Assembly (NCBI RefSeq): GCF_001421565.1
Contig: NZ_LMKQ01000001.1
Span: 867,651 to 931,650, forward strand
Length of the DNA stretch: 64,000 nt
Reading direction: 5' to 3'
Source: Agromyces sp. Leaf222
Lineage (GTDB): Bacteria > Actinomycetota > Actinomycetes > Actinomycetales > Microbacteriaceae
The position numbers were made by a program, and so were the translations under genes. The first letter of the stretch is position 1. Each line of letters opens with the position of its first letter. This document shows, piece after piece, positions 14,168-33,689 of this stretch. The notes under the pieces are model-generated. The model ran no database searches. It had not been told where the DNA came from and saw only the letters and a list, made by a program, of their open reading frames with translations.

Positions 14168-14195
14168 CATTCGACACATGATCGAGGAGAAATCA

Positions 14196-16314: not shown

Positions 16315-17067
16315 TCAGCGCCGCGGGCTCGGCGGCCGGCGCCGCTCCCACGCGTCGATGATGTGGGCGCGCATCGCGGACTCGGCGGCCTCGGGGTCGC
16401 CGGCCTCGATCGCGGTGAACACGAGCTCGTGCTCCTGGAGCGTGAGGTCGAGCTGGCTGTGCAGGTGGAAGCGCGCGCTCTCGCGGGCCTGCGCGAACAG
16501 GGTACGCACGAGGCTGTCGGCGAGCCGGTTCGAGGTGATCTCGCCGACGACCGCGTGGAACACGACATCCGCCTCATTGAACCGGGGCTCGTCGCCGATG
16601 GTCTCGCGCATGAGGATCAGGGCCTCGCGCAGGCGCTCGAGCTGCTCGTCGGTGCGGCGCAGGGCGGCGTCGCGGGCGATGACCGCTTCGAGGGCCGCAC
16701 GCACGACGCTGAGCTCGTCGAGGATGCCGAGGGTCGCGTCGTTCGCGACGAGCGCGGAGAGCACGGTGGCGTCGATCATGCTCCACGAGGTGGGCGGCAG
16801 CACCTGGGTGCCCCGCCCCTGGGCGACGGTGACGAGGCCCTTCTCCTCGAGGCGCTTGACCGACTCGCGGATGACGGTGCGGCTGACGCCGAACTGCTCG
16901 CAGAGCACGGCCTCGGGCGGAAGTGACGACCCCGACGGCAGGTCGCCGCGGACGATCGCGTCGACGAGGGCGCCGACGACCGTCACGCCGAGGCGTGGTG
17001 CACGGACGCGCGCGGCGATCGTGGGGTACTCGGCTGCCGCGGTCGGTGCGGCCATCGGTTCGGACAT
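16315..17067 (-). CDS. GntR-family (FadR/FCD) transcriptional regulator
   Basis: In the 250-residue regulator an N-terminal winged helix-turn-helix ('PPEAVLCEQFGVSRTVIRESVKRLEEKGLV', cited in part) is followed by an all-helical FCD ligand domain. Its metal-binding histidines lie around 'NEADVVFHAVV' and 'AMRAHIIDAW'. FCD regulators usually respond to sugar acids or other carboxylates and repress in their absence. It is divergent from the sugar importer operon and converges on the beta-helix gene. Both targets carry a TATGATGT-type word upstream, making it the probable repressor of this locus. Confidence 0.9.
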   Translation of the reverse strand: MSEPMAAPTAAAEYPTIAARVRAPRLGVTVVGALVDAIVRGDLPSGSSLPPEAVLCEQFGVSRTVIRESVKRLEEKGLVTVAQGRGTQVLPPTSWSMIDATVLSALVANDATLGILDELSVVRAALEAVIARDAALRRTDEQLERLREALILMRETIGDEPRFNEADVVFHAVVGEITSNRLADSLVRTLFAQARESARFHLHSQLDLTLQEHELVFTAIEAGDPEAAESAMRAHIIDAWERRRPPSPRR

Positions 17068-17204: not shown

Positions 17205-18575
17205 ATGTCACAGCACTCGTCCTCCCGCCGCCGCGCGGCCCGGTTCCTCACGGTGGCCGCCGCGGCCACCGCAGGGCTCCTCGCGCTCAGCGGTTGCTCC
17301 GCAGATGCATCGGGCGGTGGTGACTCCTCGTTGGGCTTCACCCAGGCCGAGCAGGTCGCCGACAGCCCGATCACCGTCTGGGTCGACGCATCGCGCGAGC
17401 CGGCGGTCACCGCCTTCCAGGCGAAGTACCCCGACATCGAGGTGAACCTCGAGACCTACGACGGCAATGCCGGCGGCAGCGGCTCGTTCCAGAGCAAGAT
17501 CTCGCTCATGGACCAGGCCGGCGAGGGATGGCCCGACGTCGTCTTCTCCACGCAGCAGAACGACGCGATCTGGGCGTCCAAGCAGACCACCACCGGTGAG
17601 CAGGGCTTCGCGGCGCCGCTCAACAAGGGCTTCATCGAGCAGGACTTCCTCGACGGCTTCGCCCAGGGATCGCTCGACTACACGACGATCGACGGCACCG
17701 TCTACGGCCTGCGCAACGACCTCGCGCAGACCGTCTTCTACTCCAACCAGAAGCTCCTCGACGAGTTCGGCTACGAGACGCCGACGACCTGGGAGGAGTA
17801 CGCCGAGCTCGGCGACAAGCTCGCCGCAGAGCACCCCGGCTACATCCTCGGCAGCATGGGCGACAGCTTCATGACCTACGTCTACTACGGCGGGTCGGAG
17901 TCGCCGGTGTTCCAGTCGCCCGAGGCGAACGTGTTCCACTCCGACACGAGCGACGCGAACTCCGAGAAGATCTCGAAGATCATCGACGGCATGCTCGCCA
18001 ACGGCACGCTCGTGCAGGACAGCTTCTTCAGCGCCGACTTCGCGTCGAAGTACGCCGACAAGCTCGTCGGCGTGCCCGGTCCGGTCTGGTACACGGGCGC
18101 GATCTTCCAGGGCGGCCTCGCGGTTCCGGCCGGTGAGATCAGCGTCAGCGCCCCGCTCACGTGGGAGGGCGGCGACGTCGCGGCCGGCAACGTCGGCGGC
18201 GGCGTCTGGTACGCCTCGAGCCACTCGAAGAACCTCGACGCGGTCAAGACGTTCCTCGAGTTCGTCACGAGCGCCGACGAGTTCCAGGTCGACGCGTCGT
18301 CGGGGTACCCGGCGTACACCGAGGCCGCCGGCAAGTGGCTCGACAAGCAGGCCGAGGCCGGGTACTTCGTCAACGACGACTTCAAGACCGTGATGTCGGA
18401 TGCCGCGGGCCAGGTCTGGTCGGGCTGGAACGTCACCTCGTGGAGCCCCGAGTCCGCCTGGGCCAAGATCGTGATCCCCGGCATCGCCGACGGCAAGACC
18501 ATCGAGTCGCTGCTGCCCGCCTGGCAGGAGGAACTCGAGAACGAGGCCACCGTCAACGGCTACTCGGTCGAGTAA
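17205..18575 (+). CDS. ABC sugar importer, substrate-binding lipoprotein (CUT1 type)
   Basis: The 456-residue extracellular solute-binding protein has a lipobox 'LALSGC' with Cys31 as the lipidated residue, then a MalE-like bilobed body ('DVVFSTQQNDAIWA', 'TTWEEYAELGDKLA'). It captures an oligosaccharide or monosaccharide for the two permeases that follow. ATG 17205 has AGGA six bases upstream. It is first in the large operon downstream of the FCD-type sites. The substrate is unknown; context favours a product of fucosylated or pectic glycans. Confidence 0.9.
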   Translation: MSQHSSSRRRAARFLTVAAAATAGLLALSGCSADASGGGDSSLGFTQAEQVADSPITVWVDASREPAVTAFQAKYPDIEVNLETYDGNAGGSGSFQSKISLMDQAGEGWPDVVFSTQQNDAIWASKQTTTGEQGFAAPLNKGFIEQDFLDGFAQGSLDYTTIDGTVYGLRNDLAQTVFYSNQKLLDEFGYETPTTWEEYAELGDKLAAEHPGYILGSMGDSFMTYVYYGGSESPVFQSPEANVFHSDTSDANSEKISKIIDGMLANGTLVQDSFFSADFASKYADKLVGVPGPVWYTGAIFQGGLAVPAGEISVSAPLTWEGGDVAAGNVGGGVWYASSHSKNLDAVKTFLEFVTSADEFQVDASSGYPAYTEAAGKWLDKQAEAGYFVNDDFKTVMSDAAGQVWSGWNVTSWSPESAWAKIVIPGIADGKTIESLLPAWQEELENEATVNGYSVE

Positions 18576-18576
18576 C

Positions 18577-19521
18577 GTGACCGTCACCGCACCTCCGGTT
18601 CCGGTCGACGCCGTCCCCTCGGGGCGGCGTCGGCCGGAGGGCCGGCGCGCGTCTCGCGTGAACGCGGGGCAGTCGCGCTTCGGCTTCGTCTTCGTCAGCG
18701 GGTACACCCTGCTGCTGCTGGCCTTCGGCCTGCTTCCCACGCTCTACGCGCTCTACCTCTCGTTCACGCGCAACGGCGCCTTCGTCGGCTTCGACAACTT
18801 CGCCCGCGTGATGGGGGACTACCGGTTCCTGCCGGCCGTCGGGCACGTCGCCCTCTACGTGCTGTACTGGCTGGTCAGCCTCATCGTGCTGGTCGTCGTG
18901 CTCGCGATCGTCGTGCACGGCATCCGGGTGCGCTGGCTCGGAAACACGGCCCGCTTCCTCTTCTACATCCCGGGCGCCATCGCAGGTGCCTCGAGCGTGC
19001 TGCTCTGGCTGTTCGTGCTCGACCCGTCGGTCAGCCCGGTGTCGGCACTGCTGCACGCCATGGGCTACGAGTCGCTCGTCAACGTGGTCGCGGTCGGCAA
19101 CCTGCCGGTCGTCTTCACGGTCATCGCCTTCTGGGCCGGAGCCGGCTCCTGGATCGTCATCATGTACGGGGCGCTCAACAACATCCCCGTCGAGGTCATG
19201 GAGGCCGCCCGCATCGACGGCGCCGGCCCGGTGCAGACGGCGTGGTACATCCAGCTGCCGATGCTCACCAAGTGGATCAGCTACATGGGCGTCATGTCGC
19301 TCGCCGCAGGCACCCAGCTCTTCGTCGAGCCGAAGATCCTCGCGCAGGCGACCAAGAACGTCGTGCCCGAGGACTACTCGCTCAACCAGCTCGCCTACCT
19401 CTACGCCTTCCGACAGGGCGACTTCTCGGGCTCGGCGGCCATCTCGGTGCTGCTGCTCGTGGTCGCACTGGGGCTCTCGGCGATCTTCATCTTCCGCGGA
19501 AAGTTGTTCGAACGTGACTGA
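18577..19521 (+). CDS. ABC sugar importer permease (MalF-like)
   Basis: A 314-residue inner-membrane protein with six predicted helices and the cytoplasmic ATPase-contact loop 'EAARIDGAGPVQTAWYIQLP'. It forms the translocation pore with the next gene's product. GTG 18577 lies one base after the binding-protein stop, closer than usual. No ABC ATPase is encoded in this operon, so a shared MsiK-type ATPase elsewhere must energise it (inference from family knowledge). Confidence 0.92.
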   Translation: MTVTAPPVPVDAVPSGRRRPEGRRASRVNAGQSRFGFVFVSGYTLLLLAFGLLPTLYALYLSFTRNGAFVGFDNFARVMGDYRFLPAVGHVALYVLYWLVSLIVLVVVLAIVVHGIRVRWLGNTARFLFYIPGAIAGASSVLLWLFVLDPSVSPVSALLHAMGYESLVNVVAVGNLPVVFTVIAFWAGAGSWIVIMYGALNNIPVEVMEAARIDGAGPVQTAWYIQLPMLTKWISYMGVMSLAAGTQLFVEPKILAQATKNVVPEDYSLNQLAYLYAFRQGDFSGSAAISVLLLVVALGLSAIFIFRGKLFERD

Positions 19522-19522
19522 C

Positions 19523-20449
19523 ATGACCACCCGCACCATCGTGACCAACGGCGCCCCGCGGCGCCGGGAGCGCCACGCACTCTCACCGGGCCAGTGGATC
19601 GGCCGTGCGGTCGTCGTGCTGGTGCTGCTCGTGGTCGCGGCATTCTTCGTGCTGCCGATCATCTGGCTCCTGCTCGCCCCGACCAAGACGAACGACCAGC
19701 TCCTGCTCGACGGACCGTTCGCGTTCGGCTCCTTCGAGCAGCTGGCCGCGAACTGGAACGAGCTGTTCGCCTTCGGCAGCGGCGTCTTCACCACCTGGAT
19801 GGGCAACTCGGCGTTCTACTCGTTCGCCGCGCTCGCGATCACGCTCCTCGTGAGCATCCCGGCGGGGTACGCGCTCGCGCTCATCGAGTTCCGCGGTCGC
19901 CGGTTGCTGCTCGTGACCACGCTCATCGTGATGCTCATCCCGAACACGGCGCTGGTGCTCCCGATCTTCCTCGAGCTGAGCGCGGCGAAGCTCATCGGCA
20001 GCCCGCTCGCGGTGATCCTGCCGTTCTCGTTCTTCCCGTTCGGCGTGTACCTGACCTACATCTACTTCTCGACGGCCGTGTCGCGCGACCTGCTGAATGC
20101 CGCACGCATCGACGGCGCGGGCGAGCTGCGGGTGTTCGCGCAGGTGGCCATGCCGCTCGCGACACCGGTCATCGCGCTCGTCGGCTTCTTCAGCTTCGTG
20201 GCGAACTGGAACAACTACTTCCTGCCGTTCCTCGTCGTCGGCGGAACGAAGATCCCCGTGCAGGTCGGCCTCGCGAACCTGCTGGCCAACGTGCCGGCCT
20301 TCAACCCGACGACCGCATCGAGCATCGTGATCCAGCTGCCGACGCTGGCACTGGCGACGCTCATCTCGGTCGCCCCCATCCTGTTGATCTTCCTGTTCGC
20401 GCAGCGGTTCCTCGTCGAGGGCATGACCGCCGGCGGAACCAAGGAATGA
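19523..20449 (+). CDS. ABC sugar importer permease (MalG-like)
   Basis: The 308-residue partner permease has about six helices, the contact loop 'NAARIDGAGELRVFAQVAMP' and the MalG-type C-terminal 'QRFLVEGMTAGGTKE', which is characteristic of CUT1 importers. I chose ATG 19523; an in-frame GTG at 19514 overlapping the previous gene is an alternative. Confidence 0.92.
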   Translation: MTTRTIVTNGAPRRRERHALSPGQWIGRAVVVLVLLVVAAFFVLPIIWLLLAPTKTNDQLLLDGPFAFGSFEQLAANWNELFAFGSGVFTTWMGNSAFYSFAALAITLLVSIPAGYALALIEFRGRRLLLVTTLIVMLIPNTALVLPIFLELSAAKLIGSPLAVILPFSFFPFGVYLTYIYFSTAVSRDLLNAARIDGAGELRVFAQVAMPLATPVIALVGFFSFVANWNNYFLPFLVVGGTKIPVQVGLANLLANVPAFNPTTASSIVIQLPTLALATLISVAPILLIFLFAQRFLVEGMTAGGTKE

Positions 20450-20462
20450 GCGCGAGGCTGTC

Positions 20463-21614
20463 ATGAAGATCACCGGATACCGCACGCTGACCGCCCAGCA
20501 CCACTGGAAGCGCTCGATCGGCGACGCCAACGGGCACATCCCCGAGGCCGTCACCGAGGTGCCCATCGTCATCCTCGAGACCGACATCGGCCTCGAGGGC
20601 GTCGGGATCGGCTCGCACGCCGATCTCGAGCGGCTGTTCCCCGCGCTCGAGGGGGAAGATCCGCGGGGAGCAGCCGCCCTCTTCGACCGCATGCTCGCCC
20701 AGGTGTTCAAGAGCGGGCACGCCGGAGCGACCTACGGCGGCGTCGCCACCTTCGATGCCGCCGTCTGGGACCTCAAGGCGAAGGCCGCCGAAGAGCCGCT
20801 CTGGCGCCTGCTCGGCGGACGCGACCGCTTCGTGCCCGGCTACGCCTCAGGGCTGGACATCGCGCTCGACGACGAGGAGCTCGTCGCCTTCTACGCGGAG
20901 TTCGCCGAGCGCGGGTTCGTCGCGGGCAAGCTCAAGGGCGGCATCGACTTCGACGCCGACCTGCGTCGCCTCGGCATCCTCGCCGACGCCCTGCGCGGGA
21001 ACACCAGCCGTCCCGGACTCATGCTCGACGCCAACGAGTCGTGGCAGGTCAAGCAGGCCGTGCGCTACGTGACCGCGCTCGAGGAGCACGTCGACCTGCT
21101 CTGGGTCGAGGAGCCGCTCCGGCGATGGGATGCCACCGGGCACGCCCGGCTCAGCAACGGCATCAGGGCCGCGGTCGCGACCGGAGAGAACCTCACCGGC
21201 GTCGACCAGTTCCGGCCCCTGTTCGACGCCGGGGCGCCCGACGTGGTGCAGGCGGGCGCGATCTGGGGCGTCTCGCACATCCACCGGCTCGCGCTCGCCG
21301 CGGCCGCCCGCGACCTGCCGATCAGCCCGGTCGGCTACAACGCCAACCCGGCGGTCGCACACGTGATGACGGCCGTGCCGAACCACCTGACGACCGAGGT
21401 GCAGGACGTGCGCTTCGCCGACGGCGTGCTCGTCGACCACGAGTTCGCCGACGGCGGCATCGTGCTGAGCGATGCGCCCGGCAGCGGCATCCGCATCGAC
21501 GAGGCGCTCATCACCGAGCAGCGCGACGGCGGCGGCTGGGCCGACCCCGCCGGGCCGCACATGCGGCCGATGCGCGCGGGCCTGCGCGTCGTGCTCGACG
21601 GCGTCGAGCGCTGA
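20463..21614 (+). CDS. Enolase-superfamily sugar-acid dehydratase-like enzyme
   Basis: The 383-residue protein of the mandelate racemase/muconate lactonising group has base pair Lys156-x-Lys158 ('AGKLKGG') and metal ligands Asp189 ('LDANES'), Glu216 ('WVEEPL') and Glu242 ('TGENL'). The histidine of the usual Asp-His dyad is not at its expected place: the segment reads 'ISPVGYNANPAVAH'. It may therefore be a one-base dehydratase or have a changed specificity. It is the only candidate in the window for the L-fuconate/D-arabinonate dehydratase step needed by the surrounding genes. It starts the enzyme part of the operon, 13 bp after the permease. Confidence 0.8.
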   Translation: MKITGYRTLTAQHHWKRSIGDANGHIPEAVTEVPIVILETDIGLEGVGIGSHADLERLFPALEGEDPRGAAALFDRMLAQVFKSGHAGATYGGVATFDAAVWDLKAKAAEEPLWRLLGGRDRFVPGYASGLDIALDDEELVAFYAEFAERGFVAGKLKGGIDFDADLRRLGILADALRGNTSRPGLMLDANESWQVKQAVRYVTALEEHVDLLWVEEPLRRWDATGHARLSNGIRAAVATGENLTGVDQFRPLFDAGAPDVVQAGAIWGVSHIHRLALAAAARDLPISPVGYNANPAVAHVMTAVPNHLTTEVQDVRFADGVLVDHEFADGGIVLSDAPGSGIRIDEALITEQRDGGGWADPAGPHMRPMRAGLRVVLDGVER

Positions 21615-21631
21615 GAAGGAGAACGGACACG

Positions 21632-22594
21632 ATGGAACTCCGACCCGGCCTGCACCGGATCCAGGCCCCGCTCGGCGAGCGCTTCGTCGCGCTCTACCTG
21701 CTCGAGGGCGACGACGCCGCCCTGCTCGTGGACACCGGGGTGCGTGAGAGCGTCACCGACACGTTGCTGCCGTACCTCGATGCCGCCGGCATCCCGCGCG
21801 AGAAGCTGCGGTGGGCGGTCGACACGCACTGCGACTTCGACCACACGGGCGGCAACGGCGCGCTGAAGGCGGCGATCCCCGGCGTGCAGATCGTCGCGCA
21901 CGAGCTCGACGCCCCGCTCGTCGAAGACGTGCAGCGACTCATCGACGAGCGCTACGGCGAGTTCCGCGACACCGACGGGTTCGACGACCCGCCCGAGACG
22001 ACGGCGTACCTGCGGAGCGTCTCCGACCTCGTGCCGGTCGACGTGCGCGTCTCCGGCGGCGAGGAGTTCGACCTCGGCGGACGCCGCGTGCGCGTGCTCC
22101 ACGTGCCGGGCCACAGCCCGGGCCACGTCGCCATCCACGACGCCGAGAACCGTGCGCTGCTCATCGGCGACGCCACGCTCGGCACGACCGTGCCCTTCGC
22201 CGACGGCCGCGCCGCGTTCCCGCCGACCTACCGCGACGTCGATCCGTACGTCGAGAGCCTGCGGGCGTTCCGCGCGCTCGACGCCGACCTGCTGCTCACC
22301 GCGCACTACCCGGTCTACGAGGGCGACGGCGTCGCCGCCTTCCTCGACGGGAGCGAGGCCTACACGCAGCGCATCGACGAGGTCGTCTCCGCGCTGCTCG
22401 CCGAGCGCACGGAGCCGGCGACCACCCTCGAGCTCGTGCGCGCCGCGGGCGCCGAGCTCGGCCCATGGGGCCCGGATGCGCTCGACTACGCCGTGTTCCC
22501 CGTGACGGGCAACCTCGAGCGGCTCGAACGACGCGGACTCGCGACATCCGCCATCGAAGCCGACGGACGACGCACCTGGCGGTGGGTTCGATGA
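21632..22594 (+). CDS. Metallo-beta-lactamase-fold hydrolase
   Basis: The 320-residue MBL protein has a metal-binding motif of HxDxDH form ('THCDFDHTGG'), further ligands in 'HVPGHSPGHV', 'IGDATLG' and 'TAHYP', and a C-terminal winged region as in glyoxalase II/RNase Z-like hydrolases. A thioesterase role on a CoA thioester, or lactone hydrolysis, would fit the neighbouring CoA-transferase, but this is inference. AAGGAGAA precedes ATG 21632. Its stop overlaps the next start (ATGA). Confidence 0.85.
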   Translation: MELRPGLHRIQAPLGERFVALYLLEGDDAALLVDTGVRESVTDTLLPYLDAAGIPREKLRWAVDTHCDFDHTGGNGALKAAIPGVQIVAHELDAPLVEDVQRLIDERYGEFRDTDGFDDPPETTAYLRSVSDLVPVDVRVSGGEEFDLGGRRVRVLHVPGHSPGHVAIHDAENRALLIGDATLGTTVPFADGRAAFPPTYRDVDPYVESLRAFRALDADLLLTAHYPVYEGDGVAAFLDGSEAYTQRIDEVVSALLAERTEPATTLELVRAAGAELGPWGPDALDYAVFPVTGNLERLERRGLATSAIEADGRRTWRWVR

Positions 22595-23664
22595 GCGCCC
22601 GGGTGCGCCTCGGCGCCGTCGGCGCCGGCTGGTGGGCGACGAGCAACCACTTCCCGATCTTCGCCGCGCGCGACGATGTCGACCTCGTCGGGGTCTGCGG
22701 CATCGGCCCCGAGCTCGAGACCGTGCGCGAGCAGTTCGGGTTCGGCATGGCGACGACCGACTACGACGAACTGCTCGACCAGGAGCTCGACGCGATGGTC
22801 GTCTCGACGCCGCACGACCTGCACCACCCGCAGGCCGTCGCCGCGATCGAGCGGGGGCTGCACGTACTCGTCGAGAAGCCCGTGACGCTGCGCGCGGCGC
22901 AGGGCTGGGACCTCGCGGCCAGGGTGCGCGAGCACGGCGTGCACTTCCTTGCGCCCTACGGATGGAACTACAAGCCGTTCATCGTCGAGGCCAAGCGCCT
23001 CGTCGAGGCCGGGCACCTCGGCGAGATCCAGCACGTGACGTGCAACATGGCCTCGCCGACCCGCGGCCTCTTCGCCGGCGACACGAACCACATCCGCGCG
23101 CTCTGGGACTCCGAGACGAGCGGCCCAGAGCCGAGCACGTGGCAGTCGCCCGCGCGCGGCGGCGGCTACGCCCACGGTCAGGTCACCCACTCGAGCGCCC
23201 TGCTGTTCTGGCTGAGCGACCTGCGCGCGGCATCCGTCATGGCGAAGGTCTCGAACGGCGGTGCCGCGGTCGACCTCTTCAACGCGGCCGTCATCACCTT
23301 CGACGGCGGCGCGCTCGGGTCGCTCTCGGGTGCCGCGACCGTGCCCGACGGCGACCCGTACCAGGTCGACATCCGGATCTTCGGCACCGAGGGGGTGCTC
23401 ATGCTCGACACCGAGCGCGAGCGCGCCTGGGTGCATCGCTACGACGGAACGCGCTTCGACATCGAGGTCGAGCCGGGCGCCGGCGCGTACGAGTGCATCG
23501 TGCCGCCGAACCGGTTCATCGACCTCGTCACGGGTGCGAGCACCGAGAACAACTCCGACGTCGAGGTGGCGGCCCGCTCGGTGGAACTGATCGACGCCAT
23601 GCTGCGCAGCGCTGCTGCGGGAGGGACCGACGTGAACGTGCACGACGAGGAGCAGGCCGCATGA
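22591..23664 (+). CDS. Gfo/Idh/MocA-family oxidoreductase
   Basis: The 357-residue two-domain NAD(P)-dependent oxidoreductase has an N-terminal Rossmann fold ('LGAVGAGWWATSNH'), the family lysine in 'VLVEKPVTL' and a C-terminal alpha/beta domain. Members oxidise or reduce sugars, inositols or sugar-derived ketones. The substrate is not evident. It is translationally coupled on both sides (ATGA overlaps). Confidence 0.88.
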   Translation: MSARVRLGAVGAGWWATSNHFPIFAARDDVDLVGVCGIGPELETVREQFGFGMATTDYDELLDQELDAMVVSTPHDLHHPQAVAAIERGLHVLVEKPVTLRAAQGWDLAARVREHGVHFLAPYGWNYKPFIVEAKRLVEAGHLGEIQHVTCNMASPTRGLFAGDTNHIRALWDSETSGPEPSTWQSPARGGGYAHGQVTHSSALLFWLSDLRAASVMAKVSNGGAAVDLFNAAVITFDGGALGSLSGAATVPDGDPYQVDIRIFGTEGVLMLDTERERAWVHRYDGTRFDIEVEPGAGAYECIVPPNRFIDLVTGASTENNSDVEVAARSVELIDAMLRSAAAGGTDVNVHDEEQAA

Positions 23665-24881
23665 CCCAGGGAGTGCTCGCCGGATACCGCGTCATCGACT
23701 GCTCGATCGCCATGGCCGGCCCGTTCGCGGCCCAGCGCCTCGGCGATCTCGGGGCCGATGTCATCAAGGTCGAGCCGACGACCGGCGAGTGGCAGCGCCA
23801 CGCCGCAGCCGGCGGTGCCGCCGGCAACGAGATCAACGTCTCGTTCCTCTCGCTGAACCGCAACAAGCGGTCGATCGCGCTCGACCTCAAGGCCGACGAC
23901 GGCAAGGCGGCCCTGCGCGAGCTCATCGCCGGCGCCGACGCGTTCCTGCAGAACTACCGGCCGGGCGTCGCCGCGAGGCTCGGCGTCGACTACGAGTCGC
24001 TGCGGGAGATCAACCCGTCGATCGTCTACGTCTCGATCTCGGGCTACGGCGAGGACGGCCCGTACCGCGACCGCCCCGGCCAGGACCTGCTACTGCAGGC
24101 GATGTCCGGCGCGATGTACTCCGCGGGCCGCGACGGCGACGAGCCGTCGCCCGCCGGCCAGTACCTCGCCGACGCGATCACCGCGTCGACCGCGTTCGAG
24201 GGCGTGCTCGCCGCGCTCCTGCACCGCGAGCGCACGGGCGAGGGCCAACTCGTGACCGTCAACATGCTCGACGCGCTCACGACGCTGCAGATGCAGGAGC
24301 TCTCGGTCTTCACGGTGGGCCGCAAGGCCCAGCAGCGTTCGGCCCAGCCGCACGCGCACGTCTACATCCGCGCGCCCTACGGCGTCTTCGAGACGAGCGA
24401 CGGGTACGTCGCGCTCGCCTTCGCCGACCTGCACGAGCTCGGCCGCCTCATCGGCGAGCCCGCGTTCGAGGGCTGGTCGAGCGAGGTCGAGGGCTGGACC
24501 CGTCGCGACGAGATCCACTCCCGCACGGCGACGAAGCTGCGCGAGAACACCGCGGCGCACTGGATCGCGGCCCTCGGCGCCGCCGGCATGTGGATCGGGC
24601 CGGTGAACGACTACGCGCAGCTCGTCGACGACCCGCAGATCCGGCACAACGGCACGTTCATCGAGTACGAGCACCCGACCGAGGGGCGCGTGAAGACCCC
24701 GGGGTTCCCCTACCGCTTCTCGGCGACGCCGCCGCAGCTCTACCGCGGCGCACCGCTCGTCGGCGAGCACACGCGCGAGGTGCTGGCCGAGGCGGGGTAC
24801 GACGCCGACCGTATCGACGCGATCCTCGCCTCGGGTGCGGCACGGGCGACGGATGCCGCGCCCGCCGTCGCCGGCGCCTGA
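23661..24881 (+). CDS. Class III (CaiB/Frc) CoA-transferase
   Basis: The 406-residue protein has the CaiB/BaiF fold, with N-terminal 'YRVIDCSIAMAGPFAAQRLGDLGADVIKVE' (cited in part), 'NRNKRSIALDLK' and the catalytic aspartate Asp142 in 'RPGQDLLLQAMSG'. It moves CoA between carboxylic acids. A CoA-transferase inside a sugar-type operon with an enoyl-CoA hydratase two genes on is unusual. It implies that a carboxylate intermediate is activated as a CoA thioester. Coupled to both neighbours. Confidence 0.9.
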   Translation: MTQGVLAGYRVIDCSIAMAGPFAAQRLGDLGADVIKVEPTTGEWQRHAAAGGAAGNEINVSFLSLNRNKRSIALDLKADDGKAALRELIAGADAFLQNYRPGVAARLGVDYESLREINPSIVYVSISGYGEDGPYRDRPGQDLLLQAMSGAMYSAGRDGDEPSPAGQYLADAITASTAFEGVLAALLHRERTGEGQLVTVNMLDALTTLQMQELSVFTVGRKAQQRSAQPHAHVYIRAPYGVFETSDGYVALAFADLHELGRLIGEPAFEGWSSEVEGWTRRDEIHSRTATKLRENTAAHWIAALGAAGMWIGPVNDYAQLVDDPQIRHNGTFIEYEHPTEGRVKTPGFPYRFSATPPQLYRGAPLVGEHTREVLAEAGYDADRIDAILASGAARATDAAPAVAGA

Positions 24882-26041
24882 TGACCGGGTACCTCGGCCT
24901 CACGTGGGACCACCCGCGCGGACGGCACGCACTCGAGGCCGCGGCTGCGGCGACGACGGATGCCGCGGGCAGGCCGCTCATCGAGTGGCACGTGCACTCG
25001 CTCGAGGGGTTCGAGTCCGCGCCGATCGGCGAGCTCGCCGAACGCTACGACGTGATCGTGCTCGACCACCCGCACCTCGGCGACGCGCTCGCCGCCGGAG
25101 CGCTGCGCCCGGTCGACGAGCTGTTCCCGGCCGAACTCGTCGCGCGCCTGCGCGCCGACACGGTCGGCCCGAGCGCCGCGTCGTACACGGTGGACGGCTC
25201 GCTCTGGGCGCTGCCCCTCGACGCCGCGACGCAGGTGTCGGTGCGGGTGCCCGAACTGCTCGACGCCGCACCCGCCACCTGGCACGAGGTCGCGGCGCTC
25301 GCCGAAGCCGGTGTCGCGCGCGTCGCCCTGAGCCTCGCCGGGCCGCACGCGCTGCTCACCCTCATGTCGGTCTGCGCGGCGTTCGGCCATGAGCCGGCGA
25401 CCGAGCCCGGCACCGGCCTCCTCGACGCCGAGGCGGGTGCGGCCGCGTTCGAGCTGCTCGCCGGCATCGCCCGTCGTGCGCCCGCCGACACCGCCGAGCT
25501 CAACCCGATCGACCTGCTCGAACGCATGCGCAGCCGACGTGACCTCGCGTACGTGCCGCTTGTCTACGGCTACGTGAACTCCGCCTCGGGGCCGGGCGCG
25601 CTCGCGTTCGACGACGCGCCGGCCGCGACCGCGGGCGGGCGCCCCGGCTCGACGATCGGCGGCACCGGCATCGCGATCACCACCCGCAGCACGCCCGACC
25701 GCGCGCTGCTCGACCACCTGGCCGGGCTCTTCGACCCCGCCGCGCAGGCGGGGTTCATCCCCGAGCACGACGGCCAGCCGAGCCTCCGCAGCGCCTGGAC
25801 CGACGACGCCGTGAACGCGGCATCCGGCGACTTCTACCGCCGCACGCTCACGACCATCGAGGGGTCGTGGGTGCGGCCGCGCGTCGCGGGGTACACCGCC
25901 TTCCAGTCCGAGGCGTCCGCGATCCTGCGCGACGCCTTGCTCGGCGACGCCCCGCCGGCCGCTGCCGGGGTCGACGCCATCGACGCCGTCAACGCCCGCT
26001 TCGACGCCCTCGCGTCCCTGACCGAACGGAGTCACGCATGA
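24881..26041 (+). CDS. Leaderless solute-binding-protein-like protein, cytosolic
   Basis: The 386-residue protein resembles bacterial extracellular solute-binding proteins over its length ('ALPLDAATQVSVRV', 'ATWHEVAALAEAGV', 'SRRDLAYVPLVYGYVN'). It begins directly with 'MTGYLGLTWDHPRG' and has no signal peptide, lipobox or membrane segment. It probably works in the cytosol, perhaps as a ligand-binding sensor or substrate chaperone for the CoA-transferase and hydratase beside it. This is inference; such genes co-occur with class III CoA-transferases elsewhere. Its start shares a base with the previous stop. Confidence 0.75.
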   Translation: MTGYLGLTWDHPRGRHALEAAAAATTDAAGRPLIEWHVHSLEGFESAPIGELAERYDVIVLDHPHLGDALAAGALRPVDELFPAELVARLRADTVGPSAASYTVDGSLWALPLDAATQVSVRVPELLDAAPATWHEVAALAEAGVARVALSLAGPHALLTLMSVCAAFGHEPATEPGTGLLDAEAGAAAFELLAGIARRAPADTAELNPIDLLERMRSRRDLAYVPLVYGYVNSASGPGALAFDDAPAATAGGRPGSTIGGTGIAITTRSTPDRALLDHLAGLFDPAAQAGFIPEHDGQPSLRSAWTDDAVNAASGDFYRRTLTTIEGSWVRPRVAGYTAFQSEASAILRDALLGDAPPAAAGVDAIDAVNARFDALASLTERSHA

Positions 26042-26832
26042 CCGACCTCCAGTACCCGCACGACCACGAGCACCTGCGCGTCGAGGTGGAGGGTGCCGTC
26101 GTCACCATCACGCTCGCACGGCCCGAGAAGCTGAACTCCGTCACGCAGCAGATGTCCAAGGCGCTCGTGCACGTCATCGAATGGGCGGATGCCGCAGACG
26201 AGGTCCGCGCCATCGTGCTCACGGGCGACGGCGACCGTGCGTTCTGCGCGGGCTCCGACATCCGCACCCTCGATGCCTACGCGACGCCGTGGGAGTTCCG
26301 CAACCGCGCGGACTACTGCGACGCGATCCGCGCCGCCCGCAAGCCCGTGATCGCCGCCGTCAACGGCTACGCGTTCGGCGGCGGCCTCGAGACGGCGCTG
26401 AGCTGCGACATCCGTCTCGCCTCGACGACCGCGAGCTTCGCCGCACCCGAGATCAAGCTCGGCTGGATCGGCGGCGGTGGCATGAGCACGTTCCTCGCGC
26501 ACTCGGTCGGTCCGTCGAACGCCGCCGTCATGCTCATGACCGGCGACCCGATCGACGCCGACACCGCCCTGCGGTGGGGCCTCGTCACCGAACTCGTCGA
26601 GCCGGCCCGACTCGTCGCCCGGGCACAGGAGCTCGCCGCCGTCATCGCGAGCCGCCCGCCGATCGCCGCCGAGACCGCCAAGGCGAACCTGCGCGCGGCG
26701 TTCAACATGACGCAGGATGAGTCCATCCGCTACGAACGCGACCTGCAGACGATCACCTTCGCCACCGCCGACGCCGACGAGGGCCGCGCCGCGTTCGCCG
26801 AGAAGCGCCAGGCGACCTTCCACCGCCGATGA
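26038..26832 (+). CDS. Enoyl-CoA hydratase/isomerase family protein
   Basis: A 264-residue crotonase-fold enzyme with oxyanion-hole segments 'RAFCAGSDIRTL' and 'NGYAFGGGLETALSCD' and the family motif 'EIKLGWIGGGG'. It acts on an acyl-CoA thioester (hydration, dehydration or isomerisation). Together with the CoA-transferase it indicates a CoA-dependent branch inside the operon. ATG 26038 overlaps the previous stop. Confidence 0.9.
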   Translation: MTDLQYPHDHEHLRVEVEGAVVTITLARPEKLNSVTQQMSKALVHVIEWADAADEVRAIVLTGDGDRAFCAGSDIRTLDAYATPWEFRNRADYCDAIRAARKPVIAAVNGYAFGGGLETALSCDIRLASTTASFAAPEIKLGWIGGGGMSTFLAHSVGPSNAAVMLMTGDPIDADTALRWGLVTELVEPARLVARAQELAAVIASRPPIAAETAKANLRAAFNMTQDESIRYERDLQTITFATADADEGRAAFAEKRQATFHRR

Positions 26833-26875
26833 CCGGGCGAGCCGCCACAGCCGCCGACCACGAGGAGCACCACCG

Positions 26876-28084
26876 ATGACCTGGCCCGAAGCACGAGACC
26901 TCCTGCCCGTCGACGCCGACCGCGCGACCCTGGTCGGCCGCGCCTGGCTGCCCGCCGCCCCCGGCGCAGACGCGGCCGCCGCCGGCCCCGCCGTGGTCGC
27001 CCTGCGCGGCGATGACCTGCTCGACGTGTCGACCGCGTTCCCGACGATGCGAGCCCTGACCGAGGCTGCCGACCCGGCCGCCGTGCTGGCCGAGGCGCTC
27101 GCGGCCGGCGCAGGGCGGCACATCGGCAGCCTCGCCGAGGTCGTCGCGAACACCCCGCCCGAGACGAGGGATGTCGCGCGGCCGTGGCTGCTCTCGCCGA
27201 TCGACCTGCACGTGGTGAAGGCCGCCGGCGTGACGTTCCCCGTGTCCATGCTCGAACGCGTCATCGAGGAGCGGGCGCGCGGCGACCAGGACGCGGCGGC
27301 CGTGATCCGCCGCGAGATCCTCGACACGATCGGCGGCAGCCTCGACGACCTGAAGCCCGGATCCGACGAGGCGGCGGCGCTCAAGGCGCTGCTGCTCGAG
27401 CGCGGATGGTGGAGCCAGTACCTCGAGGTCGGCATCGGACCAGACGCCGAGGTGTTCACCAAGGCGCCCGTGCTCGCGACGGTCGGCACGAGCGTGGATG
27501 TCGGCGTGCACCCGGCGTCGCAGTGGAACAACCCGGAGCCCGAGGTCGTGCTCGTCGTCAGCTCCGACGGCCGCATCGTCGGCGCGAGCCTCGGCAACGA
27601 CGTGAACCTGCGCGACGTCGAGGGCCGCAGCGCACTGCTGCTCGGCAAGGCGAAGGACAACAACGCCTCGGCCTCGGTCGGCCCGTTCATCCGCCTGTTC
27701 GATGACGGGTACGCGCTCGACGACCTGCGGCAGGCGGTCGTGTCGCTCACGATCGACGGCGTCGACGGCTACCGCCTCGACGGCACGAGCGAGCTCGCGC
27801 GCATCAGCCGCGACCCCGCCGATCTCGTCTCGCAGGTCGTCGGCGAGCACCACCGGTACCCGGACGGGTTCGTGCTCTACCTCGGCACGATGTTCGCCCC
27901 CGTCGACGACCGCGACCTGCCCGGCCGCGGCTTCACCCACCACGACGGCGACCTCGTGCGCATTGCGGAGCCGCGCCTCGGCGCACTCGTGAACCGCGTG
28001 CGCTCGACCGCGGACGCCGAGCCGTGGACGTTCGGCATCGACGCCCTCTACCGTTCCCTCGCCGCGCGCGGCCTGCTGCGCTGA
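26876..28084 (+). CDS. 2-keto-3-deoxy-sugar-acid dehydratase, FAH superfamily (XylX/KdaD-like)
   Basis: The 402-residue enzyme of the long fumarylacetoacetate-hydrolase-like family has 'NNPEPEVVLVV', 'LGNDVNLRDVEGRSALLLGKAKDNN' (cited in part) and 'YLGTMFAP', typical of 2-keto-3-deoxy-pentonate dehydratases. These convert 2-keto-3-deoxy-xylonate or -arabinonate to 2-oxoglutarate semialdehyde in the Weimberg-type route. Metal ligands Glu and Asp lie in the 'PEPEV...GNDV' stretch. The adjacent semialdehyde dehydrogenase completes the route to 2-oxoglutarate. GAGGAG lies upstream of ATG 26876. Confidence 0.82.
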   Translation: MTWPEARDLLPVDADRATLVGRAWLPAAPGADAAAAGPAVVALRGDDLLDVSTAFPTMRALTEAADPAAVLAEALAAGAGRHIGSLAEVVANTPPETRDVARPWLLSPIDLHVVKAAGVTFPVSMLERVIEERARGDQDAAAVIRREILDTIGGSLDDLKPGSDEAAALKALLLERGWWSQYLEVGIGPDAEVFTKAPVLATVGTSVDVGVHPASQWNNPEPEVVLVVSSDGRIVGASLGNDVNLRDVEGRSALLLGKAKDNNASASVGPFIRLFDDGYALDDLRQAVVSLTIDGVDGYRLDGTSELARISRDPADLVSQVVGEHHRYPDGFVLYLGTMFAPVDDRDLPGRGFTHHDGDLVRIAEPRLGALVNRVRSTADAEPWTFGIDALYRSLAARGLLR

Positions 28085-28098
28085 CCCCGGAGACCCGA

Positions 28099-29616
28099 AT
28101 GCTGAACACCACCGATCCCCGCACCGGGGCCGTCACGCCCACCGGGCTCGACGCGACCGCGCCCGAGCAGGCCGACACGATCGTGCGCGCCGCCCAGGCC
28201 GCCTTCGCCGACGTCGCCGGCCGTGACCGCGCGTGGCGTGCCGGACTCCTGCACGCACTCGCCGACGCCCTCGAGGCCGATCGCGCCGGGCTCGTCGCCG
28301 TCGCCGACCGCGAGACCGGCCTCGGCGCCGCCCGCCTCGACGGAGAGGTCTCTCGGAGCGCGTTCCAGTTCCGCCTCTTCGCCGAGGCCGTGCGCGAGGG
28401 CGGGTACCTCGAGGTCGCGATCGACCACGCGGGCCAGACCGCGCTCGGGCCCGCGCCCGAGCTGCGTCGCATGCTCATCCCGATCGGGCCGGTGGCGGTG
28501 TTCGGCTCGAGCAACTTCCCGTTCGCGTTCTCGGTGGCCGGCGGCGACACCGCCTCCGCGCTCGCCGGCGGCAACGCCGTGGTGCTGAAGGCGCACTCCT
28601 CGCACCTCGAGACCTCCGCGCGCTCGTTCGCGGTGCTCTCGGAAGCGGCCGGCGCATACGGCGCCCCCGATGGCCTCCTCGGCATCGTCTACGGCACCGC
28701 CGCCGGTGCCGCGCTCGTCGCGCATCCGCTCGTTCGCGCGGTCGGCTTCACCGGCTCGCTGCACGGCGGGCAGGCGCTCATGGACATCATCGCCGGCCGC
28801 GACGAGCCGATCCCGTTCTACGGCGAGCTCTCGAGCCTCAACCCGCTCGTGATCACGCCGGGCGCCGCCGCCGCGCGTGCGACCGAGATCGCCGACGGCC
28901 TGTACGGATCGTTCACGCTCGGCTCCGGGCAGTTCTGCACGAAGCCCGGCGTCGCGTTCGTGCCGGCCGGCGCCGACGGCGACGCGCTCGTCGCACGGCT
29001 CGTCGAGCGGGCGACGGATGCCGCGGCATCCGTACTGCTCAACGAGCGCATCGCGACCTCGTTCGACGACATCCGTGCGCGACTCGTCGCCGCGGGCGCG
29101 GTCGACGTGCTCGCCCGCGGAACGGAGGGGGCCGGTACGGACGGGGGAGCGGGGTTCACGGCCGCGCCCACCGTGCTCGGCGTCGAGGCGACCGCGCTCA
29201 CGGCCGAGATCGCCGAGGAGGCGTTCGGTCCGCTCATCGTGGTCGCCCGGTATGCCGACGACGGCGAGATCCTCGCGGCGCTCGACGCCGTGCCCGACTC
29301 GCTGACCGCGACCGTGCACAGCGAGCCCGCCGAGGTCGAGGCCGTCACAGGCCTCGTCGCCGCGCTCGCACCGCGCGTCGGCCGCATCGTATTCGACGGC
29401 TACCCCACGGGCGTACGCGTGTCGTGGGCGCAGCACCACGGCGGCCCGTGGCCCGCGACGAACTCGCAGCACACCTCGGTCGGCGTGAGCGCGATCCGCC
29501 GGTTCCTGCGCCCGCTCGCGTACCAGGACGCGCCGGAGGCCGTGCTGCCCGCAGAGCTGCGCGACGGGTATCGCGGCATCCCGCGCCGCGTCGACGGACG
29601 CCTGCAGCTGGACTGA
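28099..29616 (+). CDS. 2-oxoglutarate-semialdehyde dehydrogenase (NADP-type aldehyde dehydrogenase)
   Basis: The 505-residue aldehyde dehydrogenase has catalytic Cys280 ('GSGQFCTKPG') and general base Glu243 ('FYGELSSLNP'). The 'GSSNFPFAFSVAGGDTASALAGG' segment (cited in part) is characteristic of 2,5-dioxovalerate dehydrogenases. It would oxidise the product of the preceding dehydratase to 2-oxoglutarate, feeding the TCA cycle. Last gene of the 12.4-kb operon, followed by a 268-bp spacer containing a dyad repeat. Confidence 0.88.
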   Translation: MLNTTDPRTGAVTPTGLDATAPEQADTIVRAAQAAFADVAGRDRAWRAGLLHALADALEADRAGLVAVADRETGLGAARLDGEVSRSAFQFRLFAEAVREGGYLEVAIDHAGQTALGPAPELRRMLIPIGPVAVFGSSNFPFAFSVAGGDTASALAGGNAVVLKAHSSHLETSARSFAVLSEAAGAYGAPDGLLGIVYGTAAGAALVAHPLVRAVGFTGSLHGGQALMDIIAGRDEPIPFYGELSSLNPLVITPGAAAARATEIADGLYGSFTLGSGQFCTKPGVAFVPAGADGDALVARLVERATDAAASVLLNERIATSFDDIRARLVAAGAVDVLARGTEGAGTDGGAGFTAAPTVLGVEATALTAEIAEEAFGPLIVVARYADDGEILAALDAVPDSLTATVHSEPAEVEAVTGLVAALAPRVGRIVFDGYPTGVRVSWAQHHGGPWPATNSQHTSVGVSAIRRFLRPLAYQDAPEAVLPAELRDGYRGIPRRVDGRLQLD

Positions 29617-31847: not shown

Positions 31848-32822
31848 ATGAAGAGTCGCACGCTGCGATCCGGTCTGTCGCCGACCGAACTCGGCTTCGG
31901 CGCCGCGCAACTCGGCAACCTCGCCCGTGCCACCACCGACGACGAGGCCGCCGCCGCCGTCGCGACCGCGTACGACCGCGGCATCCGGTACTTCGACACC
32001 GCCCCGCACTACGGTCTCGGCCTCTCCGAGCGTCGGCTCGGGGCGGCGTTGGCCGCCTACCCGCGCGACGAGTTCGTGCTCTCGACGAAGGTCGGCCGAC
32101 TCATCGTGCCGAACGAGGCCTACGACGGCAGCGCGCGCGACGACGAGGGCTTCGACGTGCCCGCCGACCTTCGGCGGCGGTTCGACCTCAGCCGCGACGG
32201 CATCCGTCGCTCGATCGACGAGAGCCTCGAGCGGCTCGGCCTCGATCGCATCGACATCGCCTACCTGCACGACCCCGACGCGTACGGGGTGGAGGCCCAC
32301 GCCGAGGCGATCCCCGCGCTCATCGAACTGAGGGACGAGGGCGTCGTGCGCGCCGTCGGAGCCGGCATGAACCAGTCGGCGATGCCGACCGAGTTCGTGT
32401 TGCGGCACGACATCGACCTGATCATGCTGGCCGGGCGCTACACGCTGCTCGAGCAGGGGGCGCTCGACGACCTGCTGCCGGCCGCCGCCGAGCGCGGCGT
32501 CGGCATCGTCGCAGCCGGCGTCTACAACTCGGGACTGCTCTCGCGCCCGCGCCCGCCGGCCGATGCGCGCTACGACTACGCCCAGGCGCCGGCCGAGATC
32601 CTCGCCAGGGCGAACGCGATCGCCGACGTGTGCGAGGCGCTCGGCGTCACGCTGCCCGAGGCCGCCCTCGCGTTCGCACTGCGGCATCCGAGCGTCGTCT
32701 CGGTCGTGGTGGGCATGCGCACGGCCGACCAGGTCGAGCAGACCATCGAGCGGTACGCCGTCGAGGTGCCCGACGAGCTCTGGTCGACGCTGGCCGAGCG
32801 CGGGCTGCTGCGCGATGCGTGA
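31848..32822 (+). CDS. Aldo/keto reductase, L-fucose (D-threo-aldose) 1-dehydrogenase-like
   Basis: The 324-residue AKR has the catalytic tetrad Asp50 ('YFDTAPHYG'), Tyr55, Lys81 ('STKVGRL') and His141 ('AYLHDPDA'). The pattern fits aldose 1-dehydrogenases that oxidise L-fucose, L-galactose or D-arabinose to the lactone. That would be the first step of the non-phosphorylative fucose route whose later enzymes follow. GGAGGA precedes ATG 31848. Confidence 0.85.
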   Translation: MKSRTLRSGLSPTELGFGAAQLGNLARATTDDEAAAAVATAYDRGIRYFDTAPHYGLGLSERRLGAALAAYPRDEFVLSTKVGRLIVPNEAYDGSARDDEGFDVPADLRRRFDLSRDGIRRSIDESLERLGLDRIDIAYLHDPDAYGVEAHAEAIPALIELRDEGVVRAVGAGMNQSAMPTEFVLRHDIDLIMLAGRYTLLEQGALDDLLPAAAERGVGIVAAGVYNSGLLSRPRPPADARYDYAQAPAEILARANAIADVCEALGVTLPEAALAFALRHPSVVSVVVGMRTADQVEQTIERYAVEVPDELWSTLAERGLLRDA

Positions 32823-32841
32823 CGAGCGGATGCCGCGACGA

Positions 32842-33624
32842 TCAGTCGCCGGGCACATCCGCGACGGGCGCCCCGCCGTCGACGATCTCGGGAGCCGACT
32901 CCTCGAGGTGGGCGGCGGTGTACTCCTCGACGCCGAGCACGTGCACCATCATGCGGATGCGGGCCCGGTCGGGGTCGCGCGCCACGAGGGCGTTGAGGAT
33001 GGCGCGGTGCTCCTGCTGCGTCGAGTGCACGGCGTCGTGCTGGTGGATCGCGCGCCACAGGCGGGCGCGGGCCGTGCGGCTCACGAGCGCGTCGATGATG
33101 GCGGCGAACGCCGGATTGCCGCTCGCGTTCGCGATGAGCCGGTGGAAGTCGGTGTCGACGTCGATCGTCGCCTCGAGGTCGATGCGCTCGTCGGTGAGCA
33201 GCGCCTCACCGCGATCGAGGATGCGCGCGGCCTCGGCCAGGTCGTCGTCGCTGATGCGCATCGCCGCATGCGCGGCGGCCTCGGGCTCGAGCACGCGACG
33301 TACGCCGAGCAGGTGCACGTTGTTCTCGGGGCTCTGCAGTTCGGCGAGCATGCCGAGCGGCTCGAAGAGCCGGCCCGGCTCGAGCGAGGTCACGTAGGTG
33401 CCGTCGCCCTGCCGGGTCTCGAGGATGCCGAGGATCACGAGCGCGCGCACGCCCTCGCGGAGCGGCCCCCGCGAGACGCCGAGCCTCGCCCCGAGCTCGC
33501 GCTCGACGGGCAGACGGGAGCCCGCGACGAGCTCTCCGCTCGTGATCATCTGACGGATGCCGTCGATCACGACCTGGGCGCGGGATCGCGCCGGGCCGGC
33601 CTCGGGGGTGTTCTCGCTCGTCAT
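32842..33624 (-). CDS. GntR-family (FadR/FCD) regulator of the fucose-type cluster
   Basis: The 260-residue regulator has helix-turn-helix 'RELGARLGVSRGPLREGVRAL' (cited in part) and an FCD domain with His ligands around 'VDTDFHRLI', 'QEHRAILNAL' and 'MMVHVLG'. FCD proteins bind sugar-acid-like carboxylates. It sits inside the cluster, converging on the aldose dehydrogenase gene and divergent from the lactonase operon, and probably controls both. ATG 33624 is used; GTG 33630 is also in frame. Confidence 0.9.
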   Translation of the reverse strand: MTSENTPEAGPARSRAQVVIDGIRQMITSGELVAGSRLPVERELGARLGVSRGPLREGVRALVILGILETRQGDGTYVTSLEPGRLFEPLGMLAELQSPENNVHLLGVRRVLEPEAAAHAAMRISDDDLAEAARILDRGEALLTDERIDLEATIDVDTDFHRLIANASGNPAFAAIIDALVSRTARARLWRAIHQHDAVHSTQQEHRAILNALVARDPDRARIRMMVHVLGVEEYTAAHLEESAPEIVDGGAPVADVPGD

Positions 33625-33664
33625 GGGCACAGCCTAGGTCACCACCCGCGCACCACTCGTGAAT

Positions 33665-33680
33665 TCATCAGATCTTTGGA
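33665..33680 (+). promoter_or_regulatory. Candidate operator of the fucose-type cluster, site B
   Basis: TCATCAGATCTTTGGA matches site A before the aldose dehydrogenase gene in most positions and abuts the ribosome binding site of the lactonase gene. A regulator bound here would block the lactonase-to-mutarotase operon. Confidence 0.4.
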
Positions 33681-33689
33681 GGAGGCCGC

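What the first reader, a model, noticed from the sequence alone, without database searches (positions are those of the whole stretch)
20463..29616. CoA-dependent branch inside a sugar-acid operon: a possible undescribed catabolic pathway
Seen: one unbroken set of genes encodes an enolase-superfamily enzyme, MBL hydrolase, Gfo/Idh oxidoreductase, class III CoA-transferase, a signal-less solute-binding-protein homologue, enoyl-CoA hydratase, XylX-like dehydratase and 2-oxoglutarate-semialdehyde dehydrogenase, downstream of a sugar importer. Most junctions are overlaps of 1-4 bases. Known: the last two enzymes are the end of Weimberg-type pentose routes, which need no CoA. Inference: a carboxylate intermediate is activated to a CoA thioester, changed by the hydratase and released by the MBL enzyme, before or beside the classical steps. 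Unusual sugar acids or branched/methylated sugars of pectin are possible substrates.
Basis: partly seen in the sequence, partly recalled or inferred. Interest (0 to 1): 0.8.

Follow-up and report, generated by a model that had tools for sequence, protein, structure and literature searches.

The report
CoA-dependent sugar-acid module with binding protein
A three-gene set, found next to sugar-oxidising enzymes in many soil and plant bacteria, looks as if it attaches coenzyme A to a sugar acid to remove water from it, with the help of a sugar-binding protein that stays inside the cell; if true, this would be a new way to break down sugars.

Summary
In detail: eight genes, one strand, 4 of 7 junctions overlapping by 1-4 bases. 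The CoA genes are not a local oddity. CoA-transferase, SBP-like protein (SBPL) and enoyl-CoA hydratase stand in this order in 75 of 80 named loci from two phyla. Among 60 genomes searched, close relatives of the three occur in the same 12.

SBPL is a complete sugar-SBP fold without room for a signal peptide. XylX is 54% identical over 376 residues to a solved 2-keto-3-deoxy-D-xylonate dehydratase. All 75 triads have a dehydrogenase front end; 25 triad+XylX loci show no enolase or IlvD gene (18 with full flanks).

Best reading: a CaiB/CaiD-like, CoA-dependent aldonate dehydration feeding XylX. It is inferred; confidence 0.38.

Strongest counter-evidence: an enolase-superfamily gene is in the window and in 21 of the 23 loci of its own front-end type, so parallel inputs remain a close rival. 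Substrate unknown. All paper look-ups failed, so novelty in print is unchecked.

The parts
17205..18575 (+). Exported sugar SBP of the ABC importer (lipobox-like LSGC in the N-terminus, read by eye)
   Evidence: translation; gene call
18658..19521 (+). ABC permease A (start uncertain: 18577 or 18658)
19523..20449 (+). ABC permease B
20463..21614 (+). Enolase-superfamily protein (MR_MLE); KxK motif and metal-ligand stretches kept, His of the MR His-Asp pair not seen
21632..22594 (+). Metallo-beta-lactamase-fold hydrolase, probable lactonase partner of the Gfo/Idh gene
   Evidence: co-occurrence
22591..23664 (+). Gfo/Idh/MocA oxidoreductase, probable sugar dehydrogenase
23661..24881 (+). Class III CoA-transferase (triad gene 1)
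   Evidence: 358 bits; Asp171 kept in 71 of 71
24881..26041 (+). SBPL, cytoplasmic solute-binding-protein homologue (triad gene 2), signature GLTWDHPRG near the N-terminus
26038..26832 (+). Crotonase-family enoyl-CoA hydratase/dehydratase (triad gene 3)
   Evidence: both catalytic Glu kept in 69 of 69
26876..28084 (+). XylX-type 2-keto-3-deoxy-pentonate dehydratase (FAH fold)
28099..29616 (+). NADP-type aldehyde dehydrogenase, probable 2-oxoglutarate-semialdehyde dehydrogenase
   Evidence: Cys280 kept in 31 of 31
16315..17067 (-). FadR/GntR-family regulator (named from sequence), divergent from the importer operon
   Evidence: translation; neighbour of the operon in relatives

Best explanation
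The eight genes encode an oxidative, non-phosphorylating sugar pathway in which the CoA-transferase, the SBP-like protein and the crotonase form one unit that dehydrates a sugar acid by way of its CoA thioester. Proposed order: (1) the importer brings in a sugar (inferred); (2) Gfo/Idh oxidises it to a lactone and MBL opens the lactone to the aldonate (inferred from families and co-occurrence); (3) SBPL holds the aldonate in the cytoplasm and presents it, and the CoA-transferase makes aldonyl-CoA (inferred); (4) the crotonase takes the C2 proton, which the thioester makes acidic, and expels the C3 hydroxyl, giving 2-keto-3-deoxy-aldonyl-CoA, whose CoA is passed to the next aldonate as in carnitine metabolism (inferred); (5) XylX dehydrates 2-keto-3-deoxy-pentonate to 2-oxoglutarate semialdehyde (strong homology); (6) the aldehyde dehydrogenase yields 2-oxoglutarate (inferred). 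The conserved unit and its company of sugar-oxidising genes and XylX are shown; the chemistry of steps 3-4, the part played by the enolase-superfamily gene and the substrate are not.
Against: An enolase-superfamily gene is in 38 of 80 loci and in 21 of the 23 of the window's own MBL+Gfo type; of the other two, L060 has an IlvD gene at its edge and L074 is cut off at that side. So nearly all the enolase-free loci are of the SDR type, and in the window a dehydratase may already be present. It is also in 8 of the 9 second-type loci that I looked at (L042, L043, L044, L216, L231-L234; not L046). 7 of the 25 enolase-free loci are short on one side or both. 21 of 75 triads lack XylX in the stretch held, 16 of them with full flanks; in one, Bordetella L109, a XylX relative lies elsewhere. 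XylX relatives are often orphans. SBPL is not always in cis: Martelella has an aldose-1-epimerase-family gene, SDR, CoA-transferase, hydratase, ABC importer and FAH gene without it, beside a second-type set that has one; L219 and L225 have a CoA-transferase without SBPL. I know of no demonstration of aldonyl-CoA dehydration. No expression or biochemical data.
Confidence: 0.38

Rival explanations
1. Two parallel inputs: the enolase-superfamily protein is the aldonate dehydratase of a classical route, and the triad handles another, modified or differently configured sugar acid (for example one whose C2 hydroxyl is blocked) that joins at the XylX substrate.
For: Enolase in the window, in 38 of 80 loci and in 21 of 23 MBL+Gfo loci; its coming and going on the tree (10 changes for the close type) fits an optional extra input. 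Pectin-type neighbours (GH141-domain match; a KduD-like SDR, named from sequence) offer several sugars. Crotonase and MaoC types side by side in Martelella suggest different stereoisomers.
Against: Enolase and triad share one set of DH, hydrolase, XylX and dehydrogenase genes in the window. The KxK-only active site does not tell what the enolase does. 25 triad+XylX loci do without it.
Confidence: 0.3
2. CoA-dependent epimerisation: aldonyl-CoA is dehydrated and rehydrated, or racemised at C2, to give the epimer that the enolase or another dehydratase accepts.
For: Crotonases and MaoC proteins are reversible hydratases; the class III fold includes alpha-methylacyl-CoA racemases (matches). Explains why enolase and triad occur together.
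Against: 25 triad+XylX loci have no enolase or IlvD in the stretch. The CoA-transferase scores better against succinate-HMG CoA-transferase (3.4e-65) than against racemases (2.7e-32 at best).
Confidence: 0.12
3. Cleavage route: a dehydrogenase makes a 3-keto-aldonate, and its CoA ester is cleaved by the crotonase to glycolyl-CoA and a shorter sugar acid.
For: Twelve loci carry a gene of a D-2-hydroxyacid dehydrogenase cluster and ten one of a glycerate-kinase-like cluster (name read from sequence; the member tested has no Pfam hit).
Against: Both hydratase-type Glu are invariant, which suits hydration or dehydration; XylX needs a 2-keto-3-deoxy acid.
Confidence: 0.09
4. One reading: a carboxylate is activated, altered by the hydratase and freed by the MBL protein acting as thioesterase.
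For: MBL-fold proteins include thioesterases of the glyoxalase II type (weak NCBIfam match, 45 bits against a cut-off of 201).
Against: No MBL hit in 57 of 80 loci; where found it is always with Gfo.
Confidence: 0.05

Closest known systems
Carnitine dehydration, CaiB + CaiD (mechanism recalled)
   Same: Class III CoA-transferase plus crotonase dehydrate a hydroxy acid as its CoA ester; sequence matches to CaiB (1xa3, 1.4e-31) and to a chain named carnitinyl-CoA dehydratase (3r0o, 8.5e-39)
   Different: Nearest solved CoA-transferase is succinate-HMG CoA-transferase (9br6, 3.4e-65); sugar context; third component SBPL; neighbour XylX
Weimberg / oxidative pentose pathway and the Sulfolobus D-arabinose route (recalled)
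   Same: Dehydrogenase, hydrolase, XylX-type dehydratase (54% to 9kkv, 21% to KdaD 2q19), aldehyde dehydrogenase
   Different: CoA-transferase, SBPL and hydratase added; no IlvD hit in 79 of 80 loci
Sugar ABC-transporter SBPs of the trehalose/maltose/sulfoquinovose type
   Different: No signal peptide, encoded between CoA enzymes; 12-19% identity in the 50 rows
2-deoxyribonate oxidation through CoA esters (recalled; the paper could not be opened)
   Same: CoA thioesters in sugar-acid catabolism
   Different: As recalled it uses a beta-keto acid cleavage enzyme, not this triad

Membership tests
Oxidative (Weimberg-type) pentose pathway | 2-keto-3-deoxy-pentonate dehydratase of the XylX kind | tested here: met
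Oxidative (Weimberg-type) pentose pathway | 2-oxoglutarate-semialdehyde dehydrogenase | tested here: inconclusive
   NADP-type aldehyde dehydrogenase with Cys280; no NCBIfam cut-off reached in the rows shown
Oxidative (Weimberg-type) pentose pathway | IlvD/EDD-type aldonate dehydratase in the locus | tested here: not met
   tblastn with three IlvD proteins of this genome: 1 of 80 loci has a hit, L060; no IlvD gene among the window operon's genes
Oxidative (Weimberg-type) pentose pathway | Enolase-superfamily dehydratase as in the Sulfolobus D-arabinose route | tested here: inconclusive
   an enolase-superfamily gene is present, but it matches no dehydratase model above cut-off (rows shown) and its activity is unknown
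Oxidative (Weimberg-type) pentose pathway | Pentose as substrate | not testable with these tools
   needs growth or enzyme assays
CaiB/CaiD-like CoA-dependent dehydration | Class III CoA-transferase with catalytic Asp | tested here: met
   PF02515 358 bits; Asp171 in 71 of 71
CaiB/CaiD-like CoA-dependent dehydration | Crotonase with both acid/base Glu | tested here: met
   Glu118 and Glu138 in 69 of 69
CaiB/CaiD-like CoA-dependent dehydration | Carnitine operon (cai) context | tested here: not met
   sugar importer, sugar dehydrogenase and XylX neighbours instead
ABC-transporter solute-binding protein | Bilobal sugar-SBP fold | tested here: met
ABC-transporter solute-binding protein | Export signal or lipobox | tested here: not met
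   conserved core begins 0-22 residues after the nearest start codon in 80 of 80, 3-8 residues in 66; only L069, L106 and L108 show another start 25-60 residues upstream (a reading of start codons, not a prediction program)
Mandelate-racemase-type acid sugar dehydratase (the enolase-superfamily protein) | KxK base and metal ligands | tested here: met
   GKLKGG and the D, E, E stretches kept
Mandelate-racemase-type acid sugar dehydratase (the enolase-superfamily protein) | Catalytic His of the His-Asp pair | tested here: not met
   SPVGYNANP where the fuconate-dehydratase-like protein of L044 has CPHAGG (alignment only)

The most novel reading that the evidence does not exclude
A third chemical solution to aldonate dehydration, beside IlvD iron-sulphur and enolase-superfamily dehydratases: a CoA-thioester-dependent dehydratase made of a class III CoA-transferase, a crotonase (or MaoC, for the opposite C3 configuration) and a sugar-binding protein that was turned from transport receptor into a cytoplasmic enzyme component. 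It is spread over at least two phyla and serves sugars that the metal-dependent dehydratases cannot take.
Probability: 0.3. Interest if true: 0.82.

Novelty: new variant of a known kind. Interest (0 to 1): 0.6.

Why it matters
If right, a route found in many genomes (573 stretches confirmed in one capped scan; 145 plasmid records) is read by present annotation as transport plus fatty-acid enzymes, and a family called 'extracellular solute-binding protein' would be cytoplasmic and metabolic. It would give a CoA-based dehydratase for sugar acids, of use for pathway discovery in soil and plant-associated bacteria and for making 2-oxoglutarate from unusual sugars. It can be tested in harmless laboratory bacteria.

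Tried and rejected
Chance clustering: rejected (75 of 80 loci in order).

XylX as a marker of the pathway: rejected. In 190 genomes of the class of G060, 38 had XylX relatives. I fetched one locus from 36 of those 38 genomes; left out were G060, whose locus does hold the triad (it is the Azospirillum locus L087), and the weak G186 match. Two more came from G062 and G064, 38 stretches in all: 0 with SBPL, 7 with IlvD, 3 with weak CoA-transferase relatives of 30-36% (L176, L194, L206), most without sugar genes. My wish to show clean mutual exclusion of IlvD and triad on an unselected set therefore failed; the sample holds too few triads.

Enolase as L-fuconate dehydratase of the right-hand cluster: not needed, since the genome has a 60% relative of the fuconate-dehydratase-like protein of L044 elsewhere (L133), but not excluded. 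The protein picks for L133-L137 inside one search were wrong genes and were not used.

SBPL as a recent copy of the operon's own exported SBP: not supported (best stretch 31% over 70 residues).

Promoter and terminator scans: no promoter match (0.2 expected), 2 terminator-like sites against 3.0 expected; uninformative in such GC-rich DNA. No Rfam match and no tRNA in the window.

Limits: the 80 loci are the best of a capped scan ranked by likeness to the window's SBPL, so they are not a random sample; related strains are counted singly; 14 of 80 loci have under 8 kb on one side or both; gene calls came from a home-made caller tuned to high GC, which failed on L125 and missed SBPL in 11 of 80 loci, so the counts rest on tblastn, with loose thresholds for SDR, DUF4432 and enolase. 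Roles of DUF4432, the AP-endonuclease-like and the glycerate-kinase-like proteins are guesses.

Odds: after the recount (enolase in 21 of 23 loci of the window's type; 7 of 25 enolase-free loci with short flanks) I lowered the main reading from 0.42 to 0.38 and the novel case from 0.33 to 0.30, and raised the parallel-input rival from 0.27 to 0.30.

Literature: no paper could be searched or opened, so nothing is claimed about what is or is not in print.
Full report
WHAT IS THERE. The eight genes reported lie at 20463-29616 on the + strand. Junctions are gap 17, overlaps 4, 4, 1, 4, gaps 43 and 14. Upstream is an ABC sugar importer (17205-20449) and a divergent FadR-type regulator (16315-17067, named from sequence). 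The window lies in a 4.4 Mb genome; the best named hit in the scan is Agromyces terreus (74%).

THE MODULE IS CONSERVED. In 60 genomes (own included) SBPL has a match in 17; the close type (53% identity or more) is in 12. CoA-transferases of 71% or more and hydratases of 71% or more occur in the same 12. In 75 of 80 a CoA-transferase of at least 55% identity is just upstream and a hydratase of at least 55% just downstream; the five others (L106, L110, L112, L117, L125) hold relatives of both at other places or at lower identity. By the tree tool's ranks 45 rows are Actinomycetota and 35 Pseudomonadota. The plasmid collection gave 145 records, among them Sinorhizobium, Azospirillum, Streptomyces and Persicobacter.

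ITS SURROUNDINGS. Two front ends exist. MBL+Gfo, as in the window, is in 23 loci, all triads. An SDR (28% identity or more, within about 5 kb) is in 53 of the 75 triads, one of them overlapping with the 23, and SDR+DUF4432 in 48; MBL and SDR+DUF4432 never stand together, and no triad lacks both front ends. XylX is in 56 of 80 and just downstream in 51; an aldehyde dehydrogenase in 30; an enolase-superfamily gene in 38 (close type in 31); IlvD in one. On the SBPL tree the front end changes at least 4 times, the close enolase 10, any enolase or IlvD 12, XylX 13 and the dehydrogenase 11 times (quick tree, loci chosen by SBPL). Annotated records show the same order, for example Sinorhizobium meliloti LMB1: Gfo/Idh, sugar phosphate isomerase/epimerase, aldose-1-epimerase family, SDR, CoA transferase, 'carbohydrate ABC transporter substrate-binding protein', enoyl-CoA hydratase, ABC importer; Variovorax and Pseudosulfitobacter add the FAH gene.

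A SECOND TYPE. In L042, L044 and L046 a CoA-transferase+SBPL pair (SBPL 33-39% to the window's) is followed by a MaoC-like gene in place of the crotonase (Pfam tested for L044 only), with an amidohydrolase and a Gfo/Idh-like gene nearby in L042 and L046. Martelella carries this type (amidohydrolase, L-rhamnose mutarotase, Gfo, CoA-transferase, SBPL, MaoC) beside a crotonase-type operon that lacks SBPL. In Shinella and Qingshengfaniella the MaoC gene lies further along, and in Qingshengfaniella a dihydrodipicolinate-synthase-family gene and an NADP aldehyde dehydrogenase stand directly before CoA-transferase and SBPL. A third variant, L045, has an acyl-CoA-synthetase-like gene between SBPL and CoA-transferase (name read from sequence).

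HOW IT MOST LIKELY WORKS. The front ends should make an aldonate; XylX consumes a 2-keto-3-deoxy-pentonate; what lies between is one dehydration. In 25 triad+XylX loci no enolase or IlvD gene is seen, 18 of them with more than 8 kb on both sides, and 12 of the 25 also have the aldehyde dehydrogenase. Where XylX has an IlvD neighbour in this genus (L224, L226) there is no triad. Class III CoA-transferase plus crotonase is the known machinery of carnitine dehydration (recalled), and aldonyl-CoA would have the acidic C2 proton that such chemistry needs. Hence the reading that the triad is a CoA-dependent aldonate dehydratase, with SBPL as binding component. Steps beyond gene order and homology are inference.

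WHAT SPEAKS AGAINST IT. The window itself, 38 of 80 loci, 21 of the 23 MBL+Gfo loci, and 8 of 9 inspected second-type loci also have an enolase-superfamily gene. Of the two MBL+Gfo loci without it, L060 has an IlvD gene at its edge and L074 is cut off on that side. So the enolase-free loci are, L074 apart, of the SDR type, and in the window the triad and the enolase may serve two inputs. Some CoA-transferases have no SBPL in cis (L219, L225, Martelella). In G010 the window-like operon lacks SBPL, hydratase, XylX and dehydrogenase, while a second locus in the same genome has all of them. 21 of 75 triads have no XylX in the stretch held, and XylX relatives often stand alone. Parallel inputs or an epimerisation therefore remain open.

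NOVELTY. None of the NCBIfam rows shown for the eight proteins reaches its cut-off, and SBPL has no NCBIfam match at all; but no literature could be consulted, since all paper look-ups failed. I file it as a new variant of known kinds (oxidative sugar-acid pathway with a CaiB/CaiD-like step), with a real chance that it is a distinct kind of dehydratase.

Noticed in passing
window 31848-36496: Second cluster downstream: aldo/keto reductase, FadR-type regulator, fuconolactonase-like amidohydrolase, FAH-family protein, SDR and RhaM-like mutarotase, resembling the non-phosphorylating L-fucose route (names read from sequence); it travels with the operon in several Agromyces-type loci.
   Followed up: partly
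window 14178-16244: Beta-helix protein with an N-terminal signal-like stretch and a GH141 insertion-domain match; beta-helix relatives also lie near triads in other loci (two clusters, 13 and 8 loci), one of them tested and matching the same domain (L090).
   Followed up: partly
L231 8715-24949: Martelella plasmid with crotonase-type and MaoC-type CoA operons side by side, the first without SBPL.
   Followed up: partly
L225 5866-18388: A further CoA-transferase (43%) with enolase-superfamily, hydratase (46%) and MBL (42%) genes, no SBPL, beside a sugar-kinase-like and an aldolase-like gene (last two names read from sequence).
   Followed up: no
L224 9180-12181 and L226 7914-10821: XylX next to IlvD in a locus with an arabinofuranosidase-like gene (read from sequence) and an importer, without the triad.
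   Followed up: partly
L030 and L031: The same operon on two contigs of one assembly (G028:C8 and C12) with equal scores; perhaps a duplicated assembly segment.
   Followed up: no
L220, L221, L222: Orphan XylX relatives (67-69%) in species of the same genus without the close-type triad, with no obvious sugar genes nearby; their role is unclear.
   Followed up: no
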